Shown here piece after piece: positions 47,184-54,694 of a DNA stretch of 64,000 nucleotides; position 1 is the first letter of the stretch; the number at the start of each line of letters is the position of its first letter. This stretch comes from Microbacterium lushaniae (GTDB lineage Bacteria > Actinomycetota > Actinomycetes > Actinomycetales > Microbacteriaceae). Location: NCBI RefSeq assembly GCF_008727775.1, contig NZ_CP044232.1, positions 744,001-808,000 on the forward strand, in the 5' to 3' direction. A model generated the notes under the pieces. It had not been told where the DNA came from. It made no database searches and was given only the letters and a program-made list of their open reading frames with translations. Both the position numbers and the translations under genes were made by a program.

Positions 47184-48776
47184 TCACCGAGCTGTCGGAT
47201 CCGGCCACAGTGGCGGGAGCTCGGCGTCGCTCGCCGCTGCGGCGCGGCGCACGAGGAGCACGCCGTCGTCCAGGTGCGCGGGCGTGCCGTCCGGCGCCGT
47301 CGTCTCGCGCGGCCGGATCTCGACGATCTCGGGATGCCACACCTCGGGGTCGAGGCCCAGCAGGCCCCACTCCTCCTCGGGTGTGCGCATGACCGGGTGG
47401 TGCTCGGTCGACTCGTGCACCGCCCACGGCGGCGGCGCCGCGTGCGAGACGACGAGGAGGTGCCCACCCGGGGCGACGCGCTCGGCGGCGTCTCGCAGCA
47501 TCCGGATGCGGGGGAAGTCCGCCTCCCGGGAGTGGAGGAAGCTCGCCAGTACGAGGTCGAATTCACCCTCGACCGCCGCCGCGCCGTCGCCGTGGACGAA
47601 TCGGGCCTCCGTGCCGCGGGTGGCGGCGAACTCCGTCGCGCGGCGCACGGCTGTCGCCGACACGTCCACGCCGGTGGCCTGCCAGCCGTGTTCGGCGAGC
47701 CACACGACGTCGCCGCCCTCGCCCGAGCCGACGTCCAGCGCCGTCCCCGGCTCGAGGGATTTCACGATCGCAGCGACGGTCGCGTTGACGCGGCCCGACC
47801 AGAAGCGGTCGTGCGCGGCGTAGCGGTCCTCCCACTCCGCGTTGCGCCGCGCGGTGCGCTCGGCGGCGGCGCGGTCGAAGTCCTCCGCCACGAGCATCGC
47901 GTTCGCCCCCGCTCCCGCCATCGAGCCGGCGCCCATCGACACCGGCACGTTGGCGTACGGTGCGGTGACGTTGCCGGCCGCGAAGACCCGCGGATGGCTC
48001 GTCGCGCCGCGCAGGTCGACCGCCAGGGGAGCGCCGGGCTCGTCGGCCCGGGCGAGCGTGAGGCTGTCGGCGAACGCGAGGTCGATGACCGGGTCACCGC
48101 CGGTGAACACCGCGTCGACGACGTGCGCCTCGCCGTCCTGTGTCACGACCGTCAGCCCGTCGGCGCCGGGGACGACCTCCCGCACCGGCGAGGGGACGAT
48201 GCGGATGCCGCGGGCGGCGAGCCGTGCGGCGGTCTCCTCGCCGAGGGGCTCGGCCGCGGCGGTGAAGGCGACGACGTCGTCGGACAGCTGCCGCACGAGC
48301 TCGATCTGGTGCAGGCTCGCCGGCGAGCCCGCGAGCACGCCGAGACGCCCGCCGGCGACCTCCCACCCGTGGCAGTACGGGCAGTGCAGCACGCTCCGGC
48401 CCCACTCTTCGCCCAGCCCGGGCACGTCCGGCAGCGCGTCGCGGATGCCGGTGGCGATCACGACCGTGCGGGCGCTCTCGTGCGATCCGTCGGCGCGCGT
48501 CACGCGGAGGGTGTCGCCATCTTCTGTCAGCGCGGTCACGGTGCCCTCGACGATCTCCACGCCGTAAGCGCGAGCCTCGGCGCGTCCCTTCTCGAGCAGC
48601 GCGGCGGGGTCGAGTCCGTCGTGACCGAGCACCCCGTGCATGTGCGCGGCGAACCGGTTCCGCGGTCGTCCGCCGTCGATCACGAGGGTGCGCCGCCGCG
48701 AGCGTCCGAGCATCTGCGCGGCGCTCAGTCCCGCGACGCTCCCGCCGATGATCACGGCATCCCATTCGTTCGTCAT
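47184..48776 (-). CDS. Fused thioredoxin-reductase-like oxidoreductase and SAM-dependent methyltransferase
   Basis: A 530-residue two-domain protein. Residues 1-300: FAD/NAD(P) oxidoreductase with GGSVAG (11-16), the CPYC redox-like pair Cys132/Cys135 in LHCPYCHGWE, and FAAGNVTAPYANVPVSMG as the second FAD motif. Residues 315-510: class I methyltransferase with motif I ALDVGSGEGG (346-355), motif II TGVDVSA and FDLVLASFLHS. This fusion occurs in several actinobacteria. The methyl acceptor is unknown; reduction of a disulfide or thiol followed by S-methylation is one possibility. Divergent from the XRE-cupin gene. Confidence 0.85.
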   Translation of the reverse strand: MTNEWDAVIIGGSVAGLSAAQMLGRSRRRTLVIDGGRPRNRFAAHMHGVLGHDGLDPAALLEKGRAEARAYGVEIVEGTVTALTEDGDTLRVTRADGSHESARTVVIATGIRDALPDVPGLGEEWGRSVLHCPYCHGWEVAGGRLGVLAGSPASLHQIELVRQLSDDVVAFTAAAEPLGEETAARLAARGIRIVPSPVREVVPGADGLTVVTQDGEAHVVDAVFTGGDPVIDLAFADSLTLARADEPGAPLAVDLRGATSHPRVFAAGNVTAPYANVPVSMGAGSMAGAGANAMLVAEDFDRAAAERTARRNAEWEDRYAAHDRFWSGRVNATVAAIVKSLEPGTALDVGSGEGGDVVWLAEHGWQATGVDVSATAVRRATEFAATRGTEARFVHGDGAAAVEGEFDLVLASFLHSREADFPRIRMLRDAAERVAPGGHLLVVSHAAPPPWAVHESTEHHPVMRTPEEEWGLLGLDPEVWHPEIVEIRPRETTAPDGTPAHLDDGVLLVRRAAAASDAELPPLWPDPTAR

Positions 48777-48807
48777 GCCCTCAGCGTCGTCGCAGATGAT
48801 GCCGATG

Positions 48808-48821
48808 GCAAACGTTCTTGC
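48808..48821. promoter_or_regulatory. Pseudo-palindrome between the divergent fused-enzyme and XRE-cupin genes
   Basis: GCAAACGTTCTTGC has GCAA/TTGC arms around ACGTTC, in the 65-base gap between starts at 48776 and 48842. A second TGGCAA lies 16-18 bases downstream. A likely operator for the XRE-cupin protein, controlling both directions. Confidence 0.4.
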
Positions 48822-48841
48822 GGATATGGCAAGCTCTGGGC

Positions 48842-49417
48842 ATGGATACCGCCCTGGACCAGATCGGACCGCGCCTGCGCGCCGCACGCCGTGACCGCGG
48901 ATGGACGCTCGAAGACCTCGCGACGCGCGTCGGGATGTCGCCGAGCACGCTGTCGCGGCTGGAGTCGGGCAAGCGTCAGGCGTCGCTGGCGCTGCTGCTC
49001 CCGCTCACTCGGCAGCTCGGTCTGCGCATCGACGACCTGCTGCCCGCGACGCCGGCGGATCCCCGCATCCGTCGCCCGGTCGAGCGTCGCGACGGCATGG
49101 TGATCGCGCCCCTGACGCTGGAGCACTCACCGATCAAGACGTACAAGGTGACGTTTCCGCCGGCGGAGGAGGCGCCCGCGCCGCGCGTGCACGACGGCTA
49201 CGAGTGGGTGTTCGTGCTGAGCGGTCGGCTGCGTCTGGCTCTCGACGGTCACGAGCACATCATCGAGCGGGGCGAGGCGGCCGAGTTCGACACCCGCACG
49301 CCGCACAGCGTGAGCGCGACGGCCGAGGGGCCGGTCGAGGTGGTCAGCATCTTCAGCGCGTCGGGGGAGCGGATCCACACGCGCGGTGTCGAGGCGCAGC
49401 CGGACGGCGGGAGCTGA
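48842..49417 (+). CDS. XRE-family regulator with C-terminal cupin domain
   Basis: A 191-residue protein. Residues 8-65 form a Cro/CI-type helix-turn-helix (LRAARRDRGWTLEDLATRVG, then SPSTLSRLESGKR). Residues 105-185 form a cupin (HDGYEWVFVLSGRLRLAL, RGEAAEFDTRTPHSV) that should bind a small effector. The ATG at 48842 begins the helix-turn-helix region; ATG 48818 would overlap the operator. Proteins of this type usually repress a divergent catabolic or detoxifying gene, here the fused oxidoreductase-methyltransferase. Confidence 0.87.
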   Translation: MDTALDQIGPRLRAARRDRGWTLEDLATRVGMSPSTLSRLESGKRQASLALLLPLTRQLGLRIDDLLPATPADPRIRRPVERRDGMVIAPLTLEHSPIKTYKVTFPPAEEAPAPRVHDGYEWVFVLSGRLRLALDGHEHIIERGEAAEFDTRTPHSVSATAEGPVEVVSIFSASGERIHTRGVEAQPDGGS

Positions 49418-49424
49418 GGTCGTG

Positions 49425-49449
49425 CCTCTTCGCCGCGACGGCGAAGAGG
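49425..49449. terminator. Hairpin between convergent XRE-cupin and HNH genes
   Basis: A perfect 11-bp stem (49425-49435 with 49439-49449, CGA loop) fills the 38-base gap between the two convergent stops. Symmetry suggests bidirectional termination. There is no T-tract. Confidence 0.7.
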
Positions 49450-49455
49450 GGTGGT

Positions 49456-50922
49456 TCAGAACGGTGGCGGGTCTCCGTCGGGGATGAACATGACCCGTGG
49501 GGGTGGTTCGTCGGTGTAGGTCTTGCCCAGCGGGCTGGTGAACTCGACCGTGCCATCCGGCAGTTGCCGGACGGTCCATTCCGTCTCGGTCTTCAGGGTG
49601 TGGTGTCGGGTGCAGAAGTGGGCGAGGTTGGTGAGCGCGGTCGGTCCGCCGTCGTGGTGTTCGTGGTTGTGGTCGATCTGGCACCGGTGGGCGGGTTGTC
49701 GGCATCCGAATCCGCGGCAGTGCTGGTCGCGGGCTTGCAGGTAGCGGCGTTGGTCGGTGCCCGGCGTGTACCGGTCGACTTCGAGGACTGTCCCGGTGAT
49801 CGGGTGGCAGAGGATCCGGTCCCATCCGGGCGCGGTGCCGGCGAGGTGTCGGGCGGTGTCGGGGTCGATGGGGATCTGTCCGTGCAGGCTGGCACCGGCA
49901 TCGGTCTTGCCGAGCAGAGTGAGTACGGGGACCACGACCTGCACGTGGGCGTGGATGGCGCCCAGCCCGCCGGGGAGGTGTTCTCCGGTGGTGGGGTCGA
50001 TCGCGGGGCTGCCGGTAAGGAGCATGTCGGCTGCGACGTCGGCGCCGATCTGGACCAGGGTGCGCGTGTCGTCAACGACCGGCTGATCTTCGTCCTCGGC
50101 GGGTGCAGTGCCCTCGACCGTGATGTCGAGCGCCTCACCCGGGCGGAACTCGGACGCTTCGGTCGGCGCCTGCGTACCTTCGGCTGACTCGTCAGCACCT
50201 TCGGCGGCTGCTGCTTCAGCGGCGGCGGCTTCGTGGGCGCGGCGGGCGCGTTCGATGTTCGCCGCATCCCGGATAGCGCGCGCCTGCCGGCGGATCCGGT
50301 CGCGGATCCCGTACGCCACGGCCGCGGGCAGCCGCAGTTGCAGCAGCGCCATCCCGTCATCCAGGTCGAGGACCGACACGCCGCGGGTCTCGACAGCTCG
50401 CGCGTGCCGGATGGTCATCCCCTCCGGGTTGACCGCTTCGGCCAGCTGCCGGGCGTACGCCTTCGTCCGCCCCGGTGCCTGCCGTGCGGCGTAGTCCAGG
50501 ACAGTTTCCTCCCATGCGGCCCGGACCTGGTCGTCGGTGATCGGTAGCCCGGTTTCGAGGATGACGTCGACGTGTCGCTTGGAGATCCGGCCGGCCTCCA
50601 ACGCGGTGACGGTCGCGGCGAACTTGGTGACGAGGGTGTGCGCGTCGCCGAGTTCTCGCTGCGCGGTCATGTCGTGCACGTGCGTGGCGAACGCGACCTC
50701 CGCAGCGACGGACCGCATCGGCATCTCCCGCTCCCGGGAGTCCCGCGACGTGAGCCTTGCGACCTGCCCGGTGGCCACCTCGGCGAGGGCGGAAAGGTGA
50801 CGGATTCGCTCTGCCTGCGCCTTCGCGACGGCAGCGTCGGCGTCCTGCAGCCCGGCGAGACCGGCCCGCATGCGGGAGACGTCCGCCGTGGTGGTTTCAC
50901 CAGGCCAGGAGCTGAATTCCAT
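49456..50922 (-). CDS. HNH endonuclease, DUF222 / 13E12 repeat family
   Basis: A 488-residue protein: DUF222 helical region (about 20-330), interrupted by an Ala/Glu-rich linker (about 235-285), and a C-terminal HNH nuclease in which CRGFGCRQPAHRCQIDHNH (about 407-425) and FCTRHHTLK give the zinc/metal ligands and the catalytic His. Many copies occur in Microbacteriaceae and mycobacteria (the REP13E12 type), where they behave like selfish or repeated elements. No inverted or direct repeats marking an element were found at its ends. Confidence 0.87.
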   Translation of the reverse strand: MEFSSWPGETTTADVSRMRAGLAGLQDADAAVAKAQAERIRHLSALAEVATGQVARLTSRDSREREMPMRSVAAEVAFATHVHDMTAQRELGDAHTLVTKFAATVTALEAGRISKRHVDVILETGLPITDDQVRAAWEETVLDYAARQAPGRTKAYARQLAEAVNPEGMTIRHARAVETRGVSVLDLDDGMALLQLRLPAAVAYGIRDRIRRQARAIRDAANIERARRAHEAAAAEAAAAEGADESAEGTQAPTEASEFRPGEALDITVEGTAPAEDEDQPVVDDTRTLVQIGADVAADMLLTGSPAIDPTTGEHLPGGLGAIHAHVQVVVPVLTLLGKTDAGASLHGQIPIDPDTARHLAGTAPGWDRILCHPITGTVLEVDRYTPGTDQRRYLQARDQHCRGFGCRQPAHRCQIDHNHEHHDGGPTALTNLAHFCTRHHTLKTETEWTVRQLPDGTVEFTSPLGKTYTDEPPPRVMFIPDGDPPPF

Positions 50923-51064
50923 ACCCTCAAACTAGCGAGGGCCACCGACATTGAACTTGCCGTACCGAGCACCGGCAGAACCGGTGGATAAGTCGTATCC
51001 GCACCGTCCTGGGGAGGATCGGCTCACATCACCGCTCGCGCGATCATGCTGGCATCCGAGGGGG
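50923..51064. other. 142-base gap without a recognised gene
   Basis: Intergenic DNA between the HNH gene start and the end of the HTH-membrane protein gene. It probably carries the HNH promoter (CCGACATTGAAC and an AT-poor leader on the minus strand), but I see no convincing boxes, hairpin or small gene. Confidence 0.4.
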
Positions 51065-52159
51065 CTAACGCCAGCGCGGGACCAGGTGGGGTGCGATGAG
51101 AGCCATGACAGGGATCGCGGCGAGCGCGAGGGACAGTGCGGCCACCAGAAACCGCCCCAGGATGCGAGTTACGGATTTTCGTTTGGCCACCAGATCGTCA
51201 CCGGGGAGAGGTCTCATGGACCAGTCGCGCATTATGGTCATCTGTTGGATTGCGGCGATCCACGTGATTGCTTCAGCCTTGAAGGATTCTCCCTCGCGGG
51301 TCAGCCGGAGCTCGATCCAACTCAGCGTGGCGGCGGCGCGCGCGCGGTCGCGGCGTTCTGCGTCCCTCGCCCCTGCGGTTCGGTAACGGCGGCCACGGGC
51401 CGAGGAAAGCAATACGCGCTCCGCTGCCCCCAAGGGTTTCAACCTTGACTTCGAGAGTTTCAACCTCCAGCGGTGCCAGAACCCGAGGAACGGTTCGGCG
51501 ATGTTGGTCCACCGGTCGACGTCCTGACTCCTGATGGTGTGCCGGACGGAGTCCAGCTGCGCGTATGCGGACTCGAACGGAATCGGAAGCAGGGCAACCC
51601 GAGTCGCCACCCATGACGAGATCGAGAGCATGGCCGCGAGAGTGAGCCCGACCACCCCGCTGAAGACGACAAGGCCTAGCCAGCCCTGCCAAAACGGCAC
51701 GTCTGCTTCTACCGACGTCTTGCTATTGGTGGTCGGCCGGTTGCCGTCGAACGGGGAGAACACCCACGACAACACTAGCCAGACGCAGACGGCGGCGATG
51801 GTGGCCCAGACGGCCCACCAGATGACCCTGGAAGTCAGCCCCCAGGTTATTGATCGACGCCGGGCGAACCTGATCTGGTCCTCCGCCTGCCAGAGCGCAG
51901 ACGACGCGCCAAGGGACTCCAGAAGCTTCCGGGCGGCCGTGAACTCTTGTTCATCCAGTTTCTTCGGGTCGCCGTCCCCGGTCGCATCAGTCGTGCTCTT
52001 CTCGCACCAACGCCGCAGTGTGGACGGGTTCACGTCGAGCTGTGCGCCGATCCTATTCACTGCAGCGTTGAGTGACAGCTGCGGGTCTTTCCTGCGCGCC
52101 TCCGCCACGAGCTTCATGGCACGCGTGCGCAGCCCTGGCGTATACGTTTTCCTCGCCAT
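51065..52159 (-). CDS. IS3-OrfA-like helix-turn-helix fused to a three-helix membrane protein
   Basis: A 364-residue protein. Residues 1-52 read like the OrfA helix-turn-helix of IS3-type transposases (RKTYTPGLRTRAMKLVAEAR, then LDVNPSTLRRWCEK), an unusual start for a membrane protein. A charged helical region (65-105) leads to membrane segments at about 112-133, 158-185 and 333-355. Between the last two lies a long, basic cytoplasmic part (about 190-330). No transposase OrfB or terminal repeats accompany it. The ATG at 52159 is favoured (AGAGG eight bases upstream); GTG 52168 is the alternative. It may be a domesticated DNA-binding domain tethered to the membrane. Function unknown. Confidence 0.65.
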   Translation of the reverse strand: MARKTYTPGLRTRAMKLVAEARRKDPQLSLNAAVNRIGAQLDVNPSTLRRWCEKSTTDATGDGDPKKLDEQEFTAARKLLESLGASSALWQAEDQIRFARRRSITWGLTSRVIWWAVWATIAAVCVWLVLSWVFSPFDGNRPTTNSKTSVEADVPFWQGWLGLVVFSGVVGLTLAAMLSISSWVATRVALLPIPFESAYAQLDSVRHTIRSQDVDRWTNIAEPFLGFWHRWRLKLSKSRLKPLGAAERVLLSSARGRRYRTAGARDAERRDRARAAATLSWIELRLTREGESFKAEAITWIAAIQQMTIMRDWSMRPLPGDDLVAKRKSVTRILGRFLVAALSLALAAIPVMALIAPHLVPRWR

Positions 52160-52532
52160 AGCAGCCACCTCTGCGGAGTGCGCACGTCATTGGGCGACAC
52201 AACCCACGGCAGCTGTCCCAGGACAACCAAAATGCGTGCGGGATGTCGCAACTTCGTCCGGTGCCCCTACTAACAAGATCCTCCTCTGGGCGTATCGGCG
52301 CCAGAGGTTCTCTCGAACCCGCGGCCTGGCTCATCTGATGAGCAGCAAGCGATGGCGGATGCCGCCTGCGTCACCGGCCGGGTATTCGGCACGGCGGGGC
52401 TTGCACGCCGCGGATCCGCTCGCGTGTCAACCGAAGACGAACGTCAGGTTGCCCGCACAGCCGGGCGTCGCGGCGGGTGCAAGCGCCTCCAGCGTCATCC
52501 GCCGGGTTGATCCGCTGCGGTCGAGCACCGGT
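52160..52532. other. 373-base gap with decayed sequence
   Basis: No intact gene. It contains a 7-bp hairpin (CCTCTGG 52283-52289 with CCAGAGG 52301-52307, 11-base loop) and a remnant of a dehydrogenase 3' end at 52427-52498. The promoter of the minus-strand membrane-protein gene must lie near 52160-52230, where ACCAAAATGCGT is the only AT-richer patch. The rest shows no structure. Confidence 0.5.
52427..52498 (-). pseudogene. Remnant of the 3' end of a zinc dehydrogenase gene
   Basis: Read on the minus strand, 23 codons and a stop give LEALAPAATPGCAGNLTFVFG, which aligns with the last 21 residues of the intact dehydrogenase at 52973-53989 (LEALNLAATPGAADKVTVVFD): LEAL, AATPG, A, T and VF are shared. 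DNA identity is also evident over roughly 70 bases. No upstream part of the dehydrogenase remains. This is a fragment of a related gene, either a decayed duplicate or the trace of a recombination. Confidence 0.6.
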
Positions 52533-52877
52533 TCACGCGTCGACAGCGCCGCCGAAGTAGACCTCGACCTCCGTCACCCTGCCGTTCCTGACCCGAAGCG
52601 CCTCGACGTTCCGCCACCGCTTGCCGCTGGCGCCGTACTCATACCGGTGCAGCACAATCCCGTCGATCTCCAGGATCTCCAACGTCTCCGGCGGCGCGTC
52701 GAAGTGGCCCGCGCTCGGGAAGCACTTCTCGAACCAGGCGGCCTTGTCGAGGTGATCGTCCTGAGGGCTGGTGAACCCGAAGTCGTCGGCCATCAGCAGA
52801 TCCGCCGTCGCGCGATCCTGCTACTGAAACGCCCGCATGAACCGCTGAACGACGTCGACCCGGTGGGACTCATTCAC
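52533..52877 (-). pseudogene. SnoaL/NTF2-like protein gene interrupted by an amber codon
   Basis: From GTG 52877 the frame reads VNESHRVDVVQRFMRAFQ, then TAG (52823-52821), then continues in the same phase QDRATADLLMADDFGFTS to a stop at 52533. The whole, about 113 residues, has the length and pattern of a SnoaL-like domain (N-terminal helix, MADDFGFTSPQDDHLDKAAW, later NVEALRVRNGRVTEVEVYFG). The amber replaces what was probably a Gln or Glu codon. Translation restarting at ATG 52790-52792 would make an 86-residue truncated protein without the first helix, unlikely to fold. It lies between two dehydrogenase sequences. Confidence 0.65.
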
Positions 52878-52972
52878 TCGATGAGCGTACGAACGCGGCC
52901 CGAATCGCGACAGGCCCCGCCCGCCGTGAGTGCGGCGGGCGGGGGCGCGATCCGGGGGTGCACTCGTTGATG

Positions 52973-53989
52973 TCAGTCGAAGACGACGGTCACCTTGTCC
53001 GCAGCCCCCGGCGTCGCGGCGAGATTCAGCGCCTCCAGCGTCTGGTCGAACGGGAAGCGGTGGCTGATGATCTTGGCGTACTTCTCCCAGTTCTCGACGA
53101 TGTCGTCGGTCACCTCGAAGATCTCGGTGGGGTAGCCCATCGCCCACACGATGTTCATCTCGCTCTGGAGGATGCCCCCGAAGTCGAGTTCGACCGGCTT
53201 CTTGTGCACCGCGACGATGCCGAGCGTGGCGCCGTGCTTGGCGATGCTCGTGACGGTCTGGGGCACGACCGCGACACCCGCCGCATCCAGGTAGATGTCG
53301 GTGGCGGGACGGACACCCCGCACCCACGGGGTCGCGCCGTCGCCCTGCAGTTCGACCAGGCGCGCGCCCACGTCTTCCTTGGAGGAGTCGATGACCGCAT
53401 CCGCGCCGATCTCCAGGGCCTTCTCGAGGCGCGAAGGGATGACGTCGACGACGACGATGTGGCTCGCACCCTTGCGGCGGTAGCCGAGCAGCGCGCCCAG
53501 CCCGATGGGGCCGGCGCCGAAGATGACGACCTTGTCGCCCTCCTTCACGCCGGTGCGGTTGACGGCGTGAAGAGCGACGGCCATGGGCTCGTTCAGCGCG
53601 GCGACATCCCACGGCACGTGATCGGGGATCACCTTGAGCTGTACGCCCGGGGCGGCGTCGCGCACGACGACGAAGGGGGTGAACCCGCCCTGCGCGCCAC
53701 CGGAGCCGAGCAGACCGTCGGTGAAGCGCATCGTGTCGATGACGACGTGGTCGCCGACGGAGAAGCCCTCGACCTCGGCGCCGACCTCGACGATCTCGGC
53801 CGCGGGCTCGTGGCCCAGGGGAGTGGCGCCCTGGCGAGGCGGGATTCCGCCGTAGCTCGCGTACATCGCGTCGGAGCCGCAGATGCCGCACGCGCGCATA
53901 CGCAGCAGGACATCCCGCGGGCCGACCTCGGGCTCATCGACCTCGACCCAGTCGATCTGATTCACACCAGTGACGTGAACGGATTTCAT
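52973..53989 (-). CDS. Zinc-dependent medium-chain dehydrogenase
   Basis: A 338-residue MDR enzyme. Catalytic zinc ligands Cys37, His60 and Glu61 are present (ACGICGSD, GHEPAAE), but the four-Cys structural zinc lobe is missing: its place reads DTMRFTDGLLGSGGAQGGF. The NAD(P) motif GAGPIG lies near 160-165. It resembles threonine/sorbitol/xylitol dehydrogenase-like enzymes; MDRs lacking the structural zinc are a minority. The ATG at 53989 has GAGGAGG upstream. It is divergent from a TetR gene with an operator between its promoter boxes. Substrate unknown. Confidence 0.85.
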   Translation of the reverse strand: MKSVHVTGVNQIDWVEVDEPEVGPRDVLLRMRACGICGSDAMYASYGGIPPRQGATPLGHEPAAEIVEVGAEVEGFSVGDHVVIDTMRFTDGLLGSGGAQGGFTPFVVVRDAAPGVQLKVIPDHVPWDVAALNEPMAVALHAVNRTGVKEGDKVVIFGAGPIGLGALLGYRRKGASHIVVVDVIPSRLEKALEIGADAVIDSSKEDVGARLVELQGDGATPWVRGVRPATDIYLDAAGVAVVPQTVTSIAKHGATLGIVAVHKKPVELDFGGILQSEMNIVWAMGYPTEIFEVTDDIVENWEKYAKIISHRFPFDQTLEALNLAATPGAADKVTVVFD

Positions 53990-54042
53990 GAGGGCCTCCT
54001 CAACCTTCGGTGGTGGTCGGCAGGAGCTGCGCGGCCACCTGA

Positions 54043-54070
54043 ATAATATCCGAGCACTGTTCGGAAACGT
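54043..54070 (-). promoter_or_regulatory. Promoter of the dehydrogenase gene
   Basis: On the minus strand TTTCCG (54070-54065), a 16-base spacer and TATTAT (54048-54043) form a promoter about 55 bases upstream of the ATG at 53989. The spacer is the TetR operator. Confidence 0.55.
54049..54065. promoter_or_regulatory. TetR-type operator
   Basis: TCCGAGCACTGTTCGGA is a 17-base pseudo-palindrome with only positions 6/12 unpaired around the central base. It fills the spacer of the dehydrogenase promoter and lies 18 bases before the TetR start, a classical arrangement for a divergent TetR repressor controlling both genes. Confidence 0.65.
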
Positions 54071-54082
54071 GAGGACAGGGCC

Positions 54083-54694
54083 GTGCGTAATGATGAACGC
54101 ATGAGTGCGAAGAGCCCAGGGCGCCCGCGCCAGACGACGCACGACGACATCCGCGCCGTCGCCTTCGCACTGTTCGCCGAGAAGGGGTACGCGCGCACCT
54201 CACTGGCCGAGATCGCCCGCGCCAGCGGCGTGAGCCGCACCACGCTGTTCGCCTACTTCCCCGCCAAGCGCGACCTCATGTGGGAGGAGTTCGACGCCGG
54301 TGCCGAGCGGATGCGGCGGACTCTGGACGCATCCCGCGACCTGCCGGTGATGGATGCGATCGTCGCGGCCCTGCTCGCGGTGGCGCACTACGGTCCCGCC
54401 GATCATGCCTCCTTCGTCGAACGCCGACGGATCGTCTATTCCGACGACGGATTGCGCGCGGCGGCGGCCCTGCGCGCCGACGAGCTGAGCGAGGTGGTGG
54501 TCGAGCAGGTGCGGCGGCGCGCGCCGGATGCCGACCCGGAGCGGGTCGGCGACGTCGTTCACGCCCTGATGGCCGTCGGCGAGCGCGGCACCGCCGACTG
54601 GGCGCACCTGCCGCAAGCGACCGAGGCGCTCGACACCCATCTGGCGACGCGGCTGCAGCCGTTCGTCGACGCGCTGCGCCCGCTCCTCGACTGA
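54083..54694 (+). CDS. TetR-family transcriptional regulator
   Basis: A 203-residue regulator with the TetR helix-turn-helix at about 20-65 (AFALFAEKGYARTSLAEIAR, then SGVSRTTLFAYFPAKRDLM) and a variable C-terminal ligand domain. The GTG at 54083 has GAGGACAG upstream; ATG 54101 is the alternative and would remove six residues before the domain. Divergent from the dehydrogenase gene, which it probably represses until an alcohol, aldehyde or ketone binds. Confidence 0.85.
   Translation: MRNDERMSAKSPGRPRQTTHDDIRAVAFALFAEKGYARTSLAEIARASGVSRTTLFAYFPAKRDLMWEEFDAGAERMRRTLDASRDLPVMDAIVAALLAVAHYGPADHASFVERRRIVYSDDGLRAAAALRADELSEVVVEQVRRRAPDADPERVGDVVHALMAVGERGTADWAHLPQATEALDTHLATRLQPFVDALRPLLD

What the first reader, a model, noticed from the sequence alone, without database searches (positions are those of the whole stretch)
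51065..52159. IS3-OrfA-like DNA-binding domain fused to a membrane protein
The first 52 residues match the helix-turn-helix of IS3-type OrfA proteins, but the rest has three membrane segments and a long basic cytoplasmic part. No transposase partner or terminal repeats exist nearby. This suggests a captured transposase domain now tethered at the membrane, perhaps as a membrane-bound regulator, a DNA-anchoring protein or a defence-related protein. It lies in a locally disordered region next to a selfish-type HNH gene.
Basis: partly seen in the sequence, partly recalled or inferred. Interest (0 to 1): 0.7.

Follow-up and report, generated by a model that had tools for sequence, protein, structure and literature searches.

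The report
Transposase domain fused to membrane protein
In one bacterial genome, the DNA-gripping end of a jumping-gene protein is joined to an otherwise unknown, probably membrane-bound protein, which could hold that grip at the cell membrane; whether the cell uses it is unknown.

Summary
The ORF (51065-52159, minus strand, 364 aa) begins with the helix-turn-helix of an IS3-family OrfA: residues 2-60 score 62 bits against a 13-OrfA profile, the DNA gives E=1.3e-19, and the best PDB fold match is the IS629 OrfA. Homology ends before the OrfA leucine zipper. The rest has three hydrophobic segments. No orfB lies in the window and no IS left end lies upstream. For a real gene: a Shine-Dalgarno-like site before residue 1, the gene frame leading in 14 of 18 codon-bias windows, and no in-frame start from residue 44 to 128. 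Against: codon bias weaker than in seven neighbours, and gene scraps around it. Best model: a membrane-tethered DNA-binding protein made by domain capture. A fusion without selected function is as likely. No support was found for a defence role.

The parts
51065..52159 (-). Chimeric gene: ATG at 52159-52157, stop at 51067-51065, 364 aa (P0001)
   Evidence: Over the whole gene its frame scores -0.026, the next best of six -0.285. In 120-nt windows it leads in 14 of 18 starting at residues 1-341; not in those starting at 81, 101, 221 and 241.
52166..52172 (-). Shine-Dalgarno-like AGAGGTG, six bases before the ATG
   Evidence: of 22 in-frame ATG/GTG/TTG codons only residues 1 and 250 have a GGAG/GAGG/AGGA core upstream.
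51986..52150 (-). IS3 OrfA-type helix-turn-helix, residues 4-58
   Evidence: nhmmer 52150-51985 E=1.3e-19; tblastn; OrfA HMM residues 2-60; AlphaFold block pLDDT 90-94 for residues 11-50; Foldseek top hit 2rn7, E=3.4e-3, probability 1.00.
51842..51985 (-). Charged linker, residues 59-106; not recognisably the OrfA leucine zipper
   Evidence: Zipper HMM scores 0.0 bits, rank 147 of 476 rows, nearly all shuffles; 56 of 500 shuffles reach the best pairwise score.
51758..51841 (-). Hydrophobic segment 1, residues 107-134
   Evidence: Kyte-Doolittle maximum 2.26.
51584..51688 (-). Hydrophobic segment 2, residues 158-192
   Evidence: Kyte-Doolittle maximum 2.17.
51161..51583 (-). Basic stretch, residues 193-333, predicted helical with low confidence
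   Evidence: 28 K+R against 16 D+E; block pLDDT 34-70.
51092..51160 (-). Hydrophobic segment 3, residues 334-356
   Evidence: Kyte-Doolittle maximum 2.61.

Best explanation
Shown: a gene present once in one genome joins the HTH of an IS3-family OrfA in frame to a protein with three hydrophobic segments and no convincing relatives. The OrfA part ends just before the zipper. Inferred: the protein sits in the inner membrane with the HTH in the cytoplasm. Positive charges fit this: RFARRRS precedes segment 1 and residues 193-333 carry a net +12, while the 135-157 loop carries a net -1. It then holds a sequence-specific DNA grip at the membrane. It most likely works like a one-component transmembrane regulator or a DNA tether: the membrane part sets position, oligomeric state or signal input in place of the lost zipper, and the HTH reads sites descended from IS3 ends, or new ones.
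For: HTH homology at protein, DNA and fold level. HTH dN 0.28-0.43 against dS 1.23-1.95 in comparison with 10 IS3 OrfAs. Third-position GC 0.71-0.87 in seven bins over both halves, highest of the three positions in 6 of 7 and tied in the last. Gene frame leads in 14 of 18 windows. No in-frame start from residue 44 to 128 and a Shine-Dalgarno-like core only before residues 1 and 250. Three hydrophobic segments. Of 32 distinct OrfA-HTH frames in the loci held, ours included, ours alone has strong hydrophobic segments after the HTH (2.61; next 1.56 and 1.38; four frames too short to score). A genus-level IS3 OrfA of 111 aa finds in this genome only our gene (58%) and one remote OrfA (26%) at E of 0.1 or better, so no parent copy of this subtype was found.
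Against: No convincing relative of the membrane part, so selection on it cannot be shown. Of 33 columns invariant in 13 OrfAs up to our residue 58, ours keeps 21; the changed ones include R40, G42 and D46 in or next to the HTH turn and four of residues 53-57. dS is near saturation, and the low ratio may come from the IS history before capture. The whole-gene codon score (-0.03) is below all seven comparison genes (0.21 to 0.57; six of them trained the table). Four of 18 windows do not favour the gene frame. It lies among scraps: a frame with an internal stop, an ADH 3' tip and a duplicated cassette. The AlphaFold model is poor outside the HTH (mean pLDDT 54.7, pTM 0.24, single sequence) and no Foldseek match reaches E=0.001. 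No sigma-70-like promoter was found. No DNA target is known.
Confidence: 0.4

Rival explanations
1. A fusion without selected function: an OrfA 5' fragment was left in frame with other sequence in a scrap region, and the product is neutral or not made.
For: Seen in one genome. Neighbours are partly decayed. Codon bias is weaker than in seven comparison genes. Twelve of 33 OrfA-invariant positions are lost or changed. Truncated OrfAs in frame with other sequence occur elsewhere: L114, where an 815-codon frame follows a decayed HTH, and L003. Frames of this length arise in 15 of 1000 shuffles.
Against: DNA identity to the IS3 loci found is 66-77% with dS above 1, yet the frame is intact. The gene frame leads in 14 of 18 windows. 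A Shine-Dalgarno-like site precedes residue 1.
Confidence: 0.4
2. A rare member of an unsampled family, brought in by horizontal transfer as cargo, in which the HTH-membrane fusion is normal.
For: GC of 63-66% in windows over the gene against 66-76% in the rest of 46-57 kb. Segment 51019-52406 has no listed match in 58 genomes, own included, apart from itself; that list was cut and five candidates a genome were scored.
Against: No match in 50,697 phage records; in 72,556 plasmid records five matches, none beyond residue 100; none in viral contigs or species contigs. The contig scans find close relatives only.
Confidence: 0.14
3. A repressor of IS3 elements: the HTH occupies IS ends without cutting, and the membrane tether sequesters them.
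For: In IS911 the orfA product is described as a regulator of transposition and the HTH as the specific DNA-binding domain (PMC2909936, passages). No other copy of this IS subtype was found in the genome. The IS end motif TGAATCGCCCCGGG has 36 matches with one or two mismatches in the genome against 8 for the motif read backwards.
Against: No exact match to the motif; the excess may reflect base-step composition. Absence of an IS has many causes. Nothing ties the gene to repression.
Confidence: 0.06

Closest known systems
IS3-family OrfA (HTH_Tnp_1, PF01527)
   Same: Residues 2-60: OrfA-type HTH and start; 40-63% identity in the 16 best rows below our own
   Different: No detectable zipper, orfB or IS left end; about 300 residues with three hydrophobic segments follow
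IS629 OrfA, PDB 2rn7
   Same: Best solved match by sequence (phmmer E=0.12) and by fold (Foldseek E=3.4e-3), for the HTH
   Different: A 108-residue chain without the membrane part
Transmembrane transcriptional regulators such as ChiS and TfoS (PMC11856585: abstract and introduction read)
   Same: A DNA-binding domain held at the membrane, by prediction only
   Different: No sequence comparison was made; HTH of transposase type; no target, input or regulated gene known here
SLATT-type 2TM effectors (recalled)
   Same: Two hydrophobic segments followed by a helical stretch
   Different: No Pfam or PADLOC match; a third C-terminal segment

Membership tests
IS3-family OrfA / transposase | N-terminal OrfA-type HTH | tested here: met
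   Pfam PF01527 itself stays below its cut-off, and 21 of 33 OrfA-invariant positions are kept.
IS3-family OrfA / transposase | Leucine zipper after the HTH | tested here: not met
   Zipper HMM at chance level.
IS3-family OrfA / transposase | orfB nearby | tested here: not met
   OrfB search of the 64-kb window: best E=0.045 over 24 residues; 3 of 3 control loci found.
IS3-family OrfA / transposase | Terminal inverted repeats | tested here: not met
   Left-end profile finds nothing upstream. Of the repeats listed, one 16-nt pair at 81% flanks the gene, taken for chance. The right end was not profiled.
Transmembrane transcriptional regulator | DNA-binding domain plus transmembrane segment in one chain | tested here: inconclusive
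   HTH and three segments by hydropathy alone.
Transmembrane transcriptional regulator | Binds a promoter and regulates it from the membrane | not testable with these tools
   Needs binding and expression assays.
Recurrent HTH-membrane fusion family | Homologues with the same architecture in other genomes | tested here: not met
   Membrane part; whole protein. Sampling is partial, draws overlap, and candidates scored per genome are capped.
Anti-phage defence protein | Match to a known defence family or defence neighbours | tested here: not met
   PADLOC 0 families for the protein; nine neighbouring frames scanned with Pfam only.

The most novel reading that the evidence does not exclude
A new transmembrane DNA-binding regulator or chromosome tether was born in a bacterium by capture of an insertion-sequence HTH, cut at the domain boundary, onto a membrane protein, and is kept by selection after the parent IS was lost.
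Probability: 0.2. Interest if true: 0.6.

Novelty: new variant of a known kind. Interest (0 to 1): 0.3.

Why it matters
Capture of transposase DNA-binding domains by host genes is best known in eukaryotes (general knowledge, not searched in depth). A bacterial case in which an IS3 HTH became a membrane-held DNA binder would show one way in which new one-component regulators arise. With one genome and an orphan membrane half the evidence is thin, so its present value is as a candidate for simple tests.

Tried and rejected
A resident IS3 copy: no orfB in the window and no left end upstream. A retained zipper: the alignment lines up residues 60-97 with the OrfA zipper, but profile and shuffle tests put this at chance. 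By eye, TGTGTCGCCC upstream resembles the IS end TGAATCGCCC; the profile does not support it. SLATT-type effector or defence gene.

Weak hits to the membrane part: L079 (E=8.5e-4) lies in a soluble, FAD-binding-type protein by eye (the script then stopped with an error, so L033, L081 and L032 were not looked at). L088 is antisense to a small gene and L090 is a multi-span protein, both by eye. In one search one match, G181 (residues 102-180, E=7.4e-5), lies outside the HTH; it is a two-span protein by eye in an 83-codon frame without an HTH, 35% over 83 columns. I read it as similarity of hydrophobic segments, but cannot exclude a remote relation. The other weak hits were not examined one by one.

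Papers: (search listings) showed no title or abstract on an IS3 OrfA HTH fused to a membrane protein; this covers that open library and those terms only. One search (DUF222, 13E12) gave listings that I did not read. The virus fold library was not searched; VIA-align was absent.

Correction: my note says 33 HTH frames; the list has 32, ours included.

Full report
What is there. The ORF at 51065-52159 runs on the minus strand and codes for 364 residues. It occurs once, at E of 0.001 or better, in a single-contig genome of 3.65 Mb.

The HTH. Pfam gives HTH_Tnp_1 below its cut-off (E=0.006 for the whole protein; 5.1e-4 for the first 58 residues). Nearer relatives are clearer. In the family sample 51 of 398 genomes, own included, have a match at E of 0.001 or better; apart from our own gene and one match, discussed below, the matches listed lie within residues 2-102. 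The best is 50% identity over residues 3-76 (E=1.3e-17). In the genus sample 31 of 164 genomes, own included, have a match; those listed lie within residues 2-99 in open frames of 50-248 codons, with up to 58% identity. I did not inspect each one. In the phylum sample 2 of 386 genomes, own included, match at E of 1e-6 or better; the other has three OrfA-type copies in frames of 124, 124 and 443 codons, the last an OrfAB. An HMM of 13 OrfAs finds residues 2-60 with 62.1 bits. A DNA profile of 13 IS3 5' ends finds 52150-51985 with E=1.3e-19. The AlphaFold model, from one sequence, is confident only for about residues 11-50; its best PDB match is the IS629 OrfA, 2rn7, at E=3.4e-3, and no match reaches 0.001.

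How well it is kept. Up to our residue 58, 33 columns are invariant in 13 OrfAs; ours keeps 21, and the changed ones include R40, G42 and D46. L48, R49 and W51 are kept. Against 10 OrfAs dN is 0.28-0.43 and dS 1.23-1.95; six chosen pairs of IS OrfAs have dN 0.12-0.22 and dS 0.59-1.05. The ratio is low in both, but dS is near saturation and includes the history before capture.

Where homology stops. The OrfA match ends at residue 60, before the zipper; a zipper HMM scores 0.0 bits against the linker, rank 147 of 476 rows. A profile of the IS left end finds nothing in the 73 bases over and upstream of the start codon. An OrfB query finds nothing convincing in the 64-kb window (best E=0.045) and is found in 3 of 3 control loci. 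So the captured unit appears to be the HTH with its start.

The membrane part. Three segments exceed a 19-residue hydropathy of 1.4, with maxima 2.26, 2.17 and 2.61. Residues 61-364 found no convincing relative: genus, 38 of 198 genomes at E of 0.1 or better, own included, best other E=0.0024; order, 8 of 396 at 0.01, own included, best other 8.5e-4; class, 10 of 394 at 0.01, own included, best other 0.0017. Draws overlap and cannot be added. The best of these lies in a soluble protein by eye. In one search one match covers residues 102-180 (G181, E=7.4e-5): a two-span protein by eye in an 83-codon frame without an HTH, which I read as like hydrophobic segments. Pattern scans of species contigs and viral contigs gave none; they find close relatives only. 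Plasmids gave five records, none beyond residue 100; phages none. NCBIfam and PADLOC list nothing, PHROGs one weak transposase (E=0.26), and the membrane part alone has no Pfam match.

Is it a gene? Third-position GC is the highest of the three in 6 of 7 bins and tied in the last. The gene frame has the best codon score of six over the whole length, -0.026 against -0.285, but this is below seven comparison genes, 0.21 to 0.57, six of which trained the table. It leads in 14 of 18 windows of 120 nt; those starting at residues 81, 101, 221 and 241 favour another frame. A stop-free run as long arises in 15 of 1000 shuffles. In-frame starts are at residues 1, 15, 18, 34 and 43, then from 129 on, and a Shine-Dalgarno-like core precedes only residues 1 and 250. 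The first hydrophobic segment cannot be made whole from a standard start codon without at least part of the HTH.

Is the architecture unusual? Of 32 distinct OrfA-HTH frames in the loci held, ours included, ours alone has a hydropathy above 2 after the HTH (2.61). The next are 1.56 in L114, a decayed HTH in a long frame that I take for spurious, and 1.38 in L099, an ordinary OrfAB. Four frames end too soon to score.

Surroundings. Downstream lies a DUF222-HNH gene. A copy elsewhere in the genome matches window 49438-50102 at 94% and 50220-51018 at 89%, and both break off at the same base, 51018; 46 bases separate this from our stop codon. Upstream are a small, weakly DUF4440-like frame (E=0.078, below cut-off) with an in-frame TAG at 52823-52821, and 22 codons from the end of an alcohol-dehydrogenase-like gene. 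No match to 51019-52406 is listed in 58 genomes, own included, other than itself; that list was cut. GC over the gene is 63-66%, against 66-76% in the rest of 46-57 kb.

How it may work. Shown: the HTH, the in-frame fusion, the hydrophobic segments, and that no parent copy of this IS subtype was found in the genome (PF01527 rings above its cut-off at two other places). Inferred: membrane location, cytoplasmic HTH, DNA binding, and any regulatory or tethering role. Transmembrane regulators that bind DNA while anchored are known (PMC11856585, abstract and introduction). In IS911 the HTH is described as the specific DNA-binding domain and the orfA product as a regulator of transposition (PMC2909936, passages). 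A membrane-tethered DNA binder is the most economical working model. A fusion without selected function is as likely, because conservation cannot be tested on one genome.

Verdict. Observation confirmed, interpretation partly supported. A candidate new variant of a known kind, with thin evidence for function.

Noticed in passing
49438-51018: The DUF222-HNH gene with its 5' flank looks like a duplicated cassette: a copy at G000:C1:3080254-3081723 matches at 89-94% in two pieces and homology ends at the same base (51018) in both; weaker relatives lie at C1:602864 and C1:1491855.
   Followed up: partly
52533-52880: Small, weakly DUF4440-like frame on the minus strand interrupted by an in-frame TAG at 52823-52821.
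   Followed up: partly
52427-52498: Remnant of the 3' end of an alcohol-dehydrogenase-like gene: 14 of 22 residues identical to the end of the intact neighbour at 52973-54142.
   Followed up: partly
47184-48884: One frame matches both a pyridine nucleotide-disulphide oxidoreductase (PF07992) and a methyltransferase domain: a reductase-methyltransferase fusion.
   Followed up: no
L114: A decayed OrfA HTH in another genome of the family sits at the head of an 815-codon open frame, a reminder that long frames in GC-rich DNA can be spurious.
   Followed up: partly
G000:C1:10280-10483 (L109) and G000:C1:2212456-2212581 (L108): The two other places in the genome above the PF01527 cut-off: a 112-aa OrfA-type frame with an OrfB-like piece downstream by eye, and a 54-aa frame.
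   Followed up: partly
G000, whole genome: The IS end motif TGAATCGCCCCGGG has 36 near matches (one or two mismatches, none exact) against 8 for the motif read backwards; unexplained, perhaps composition.
   Followed up: no
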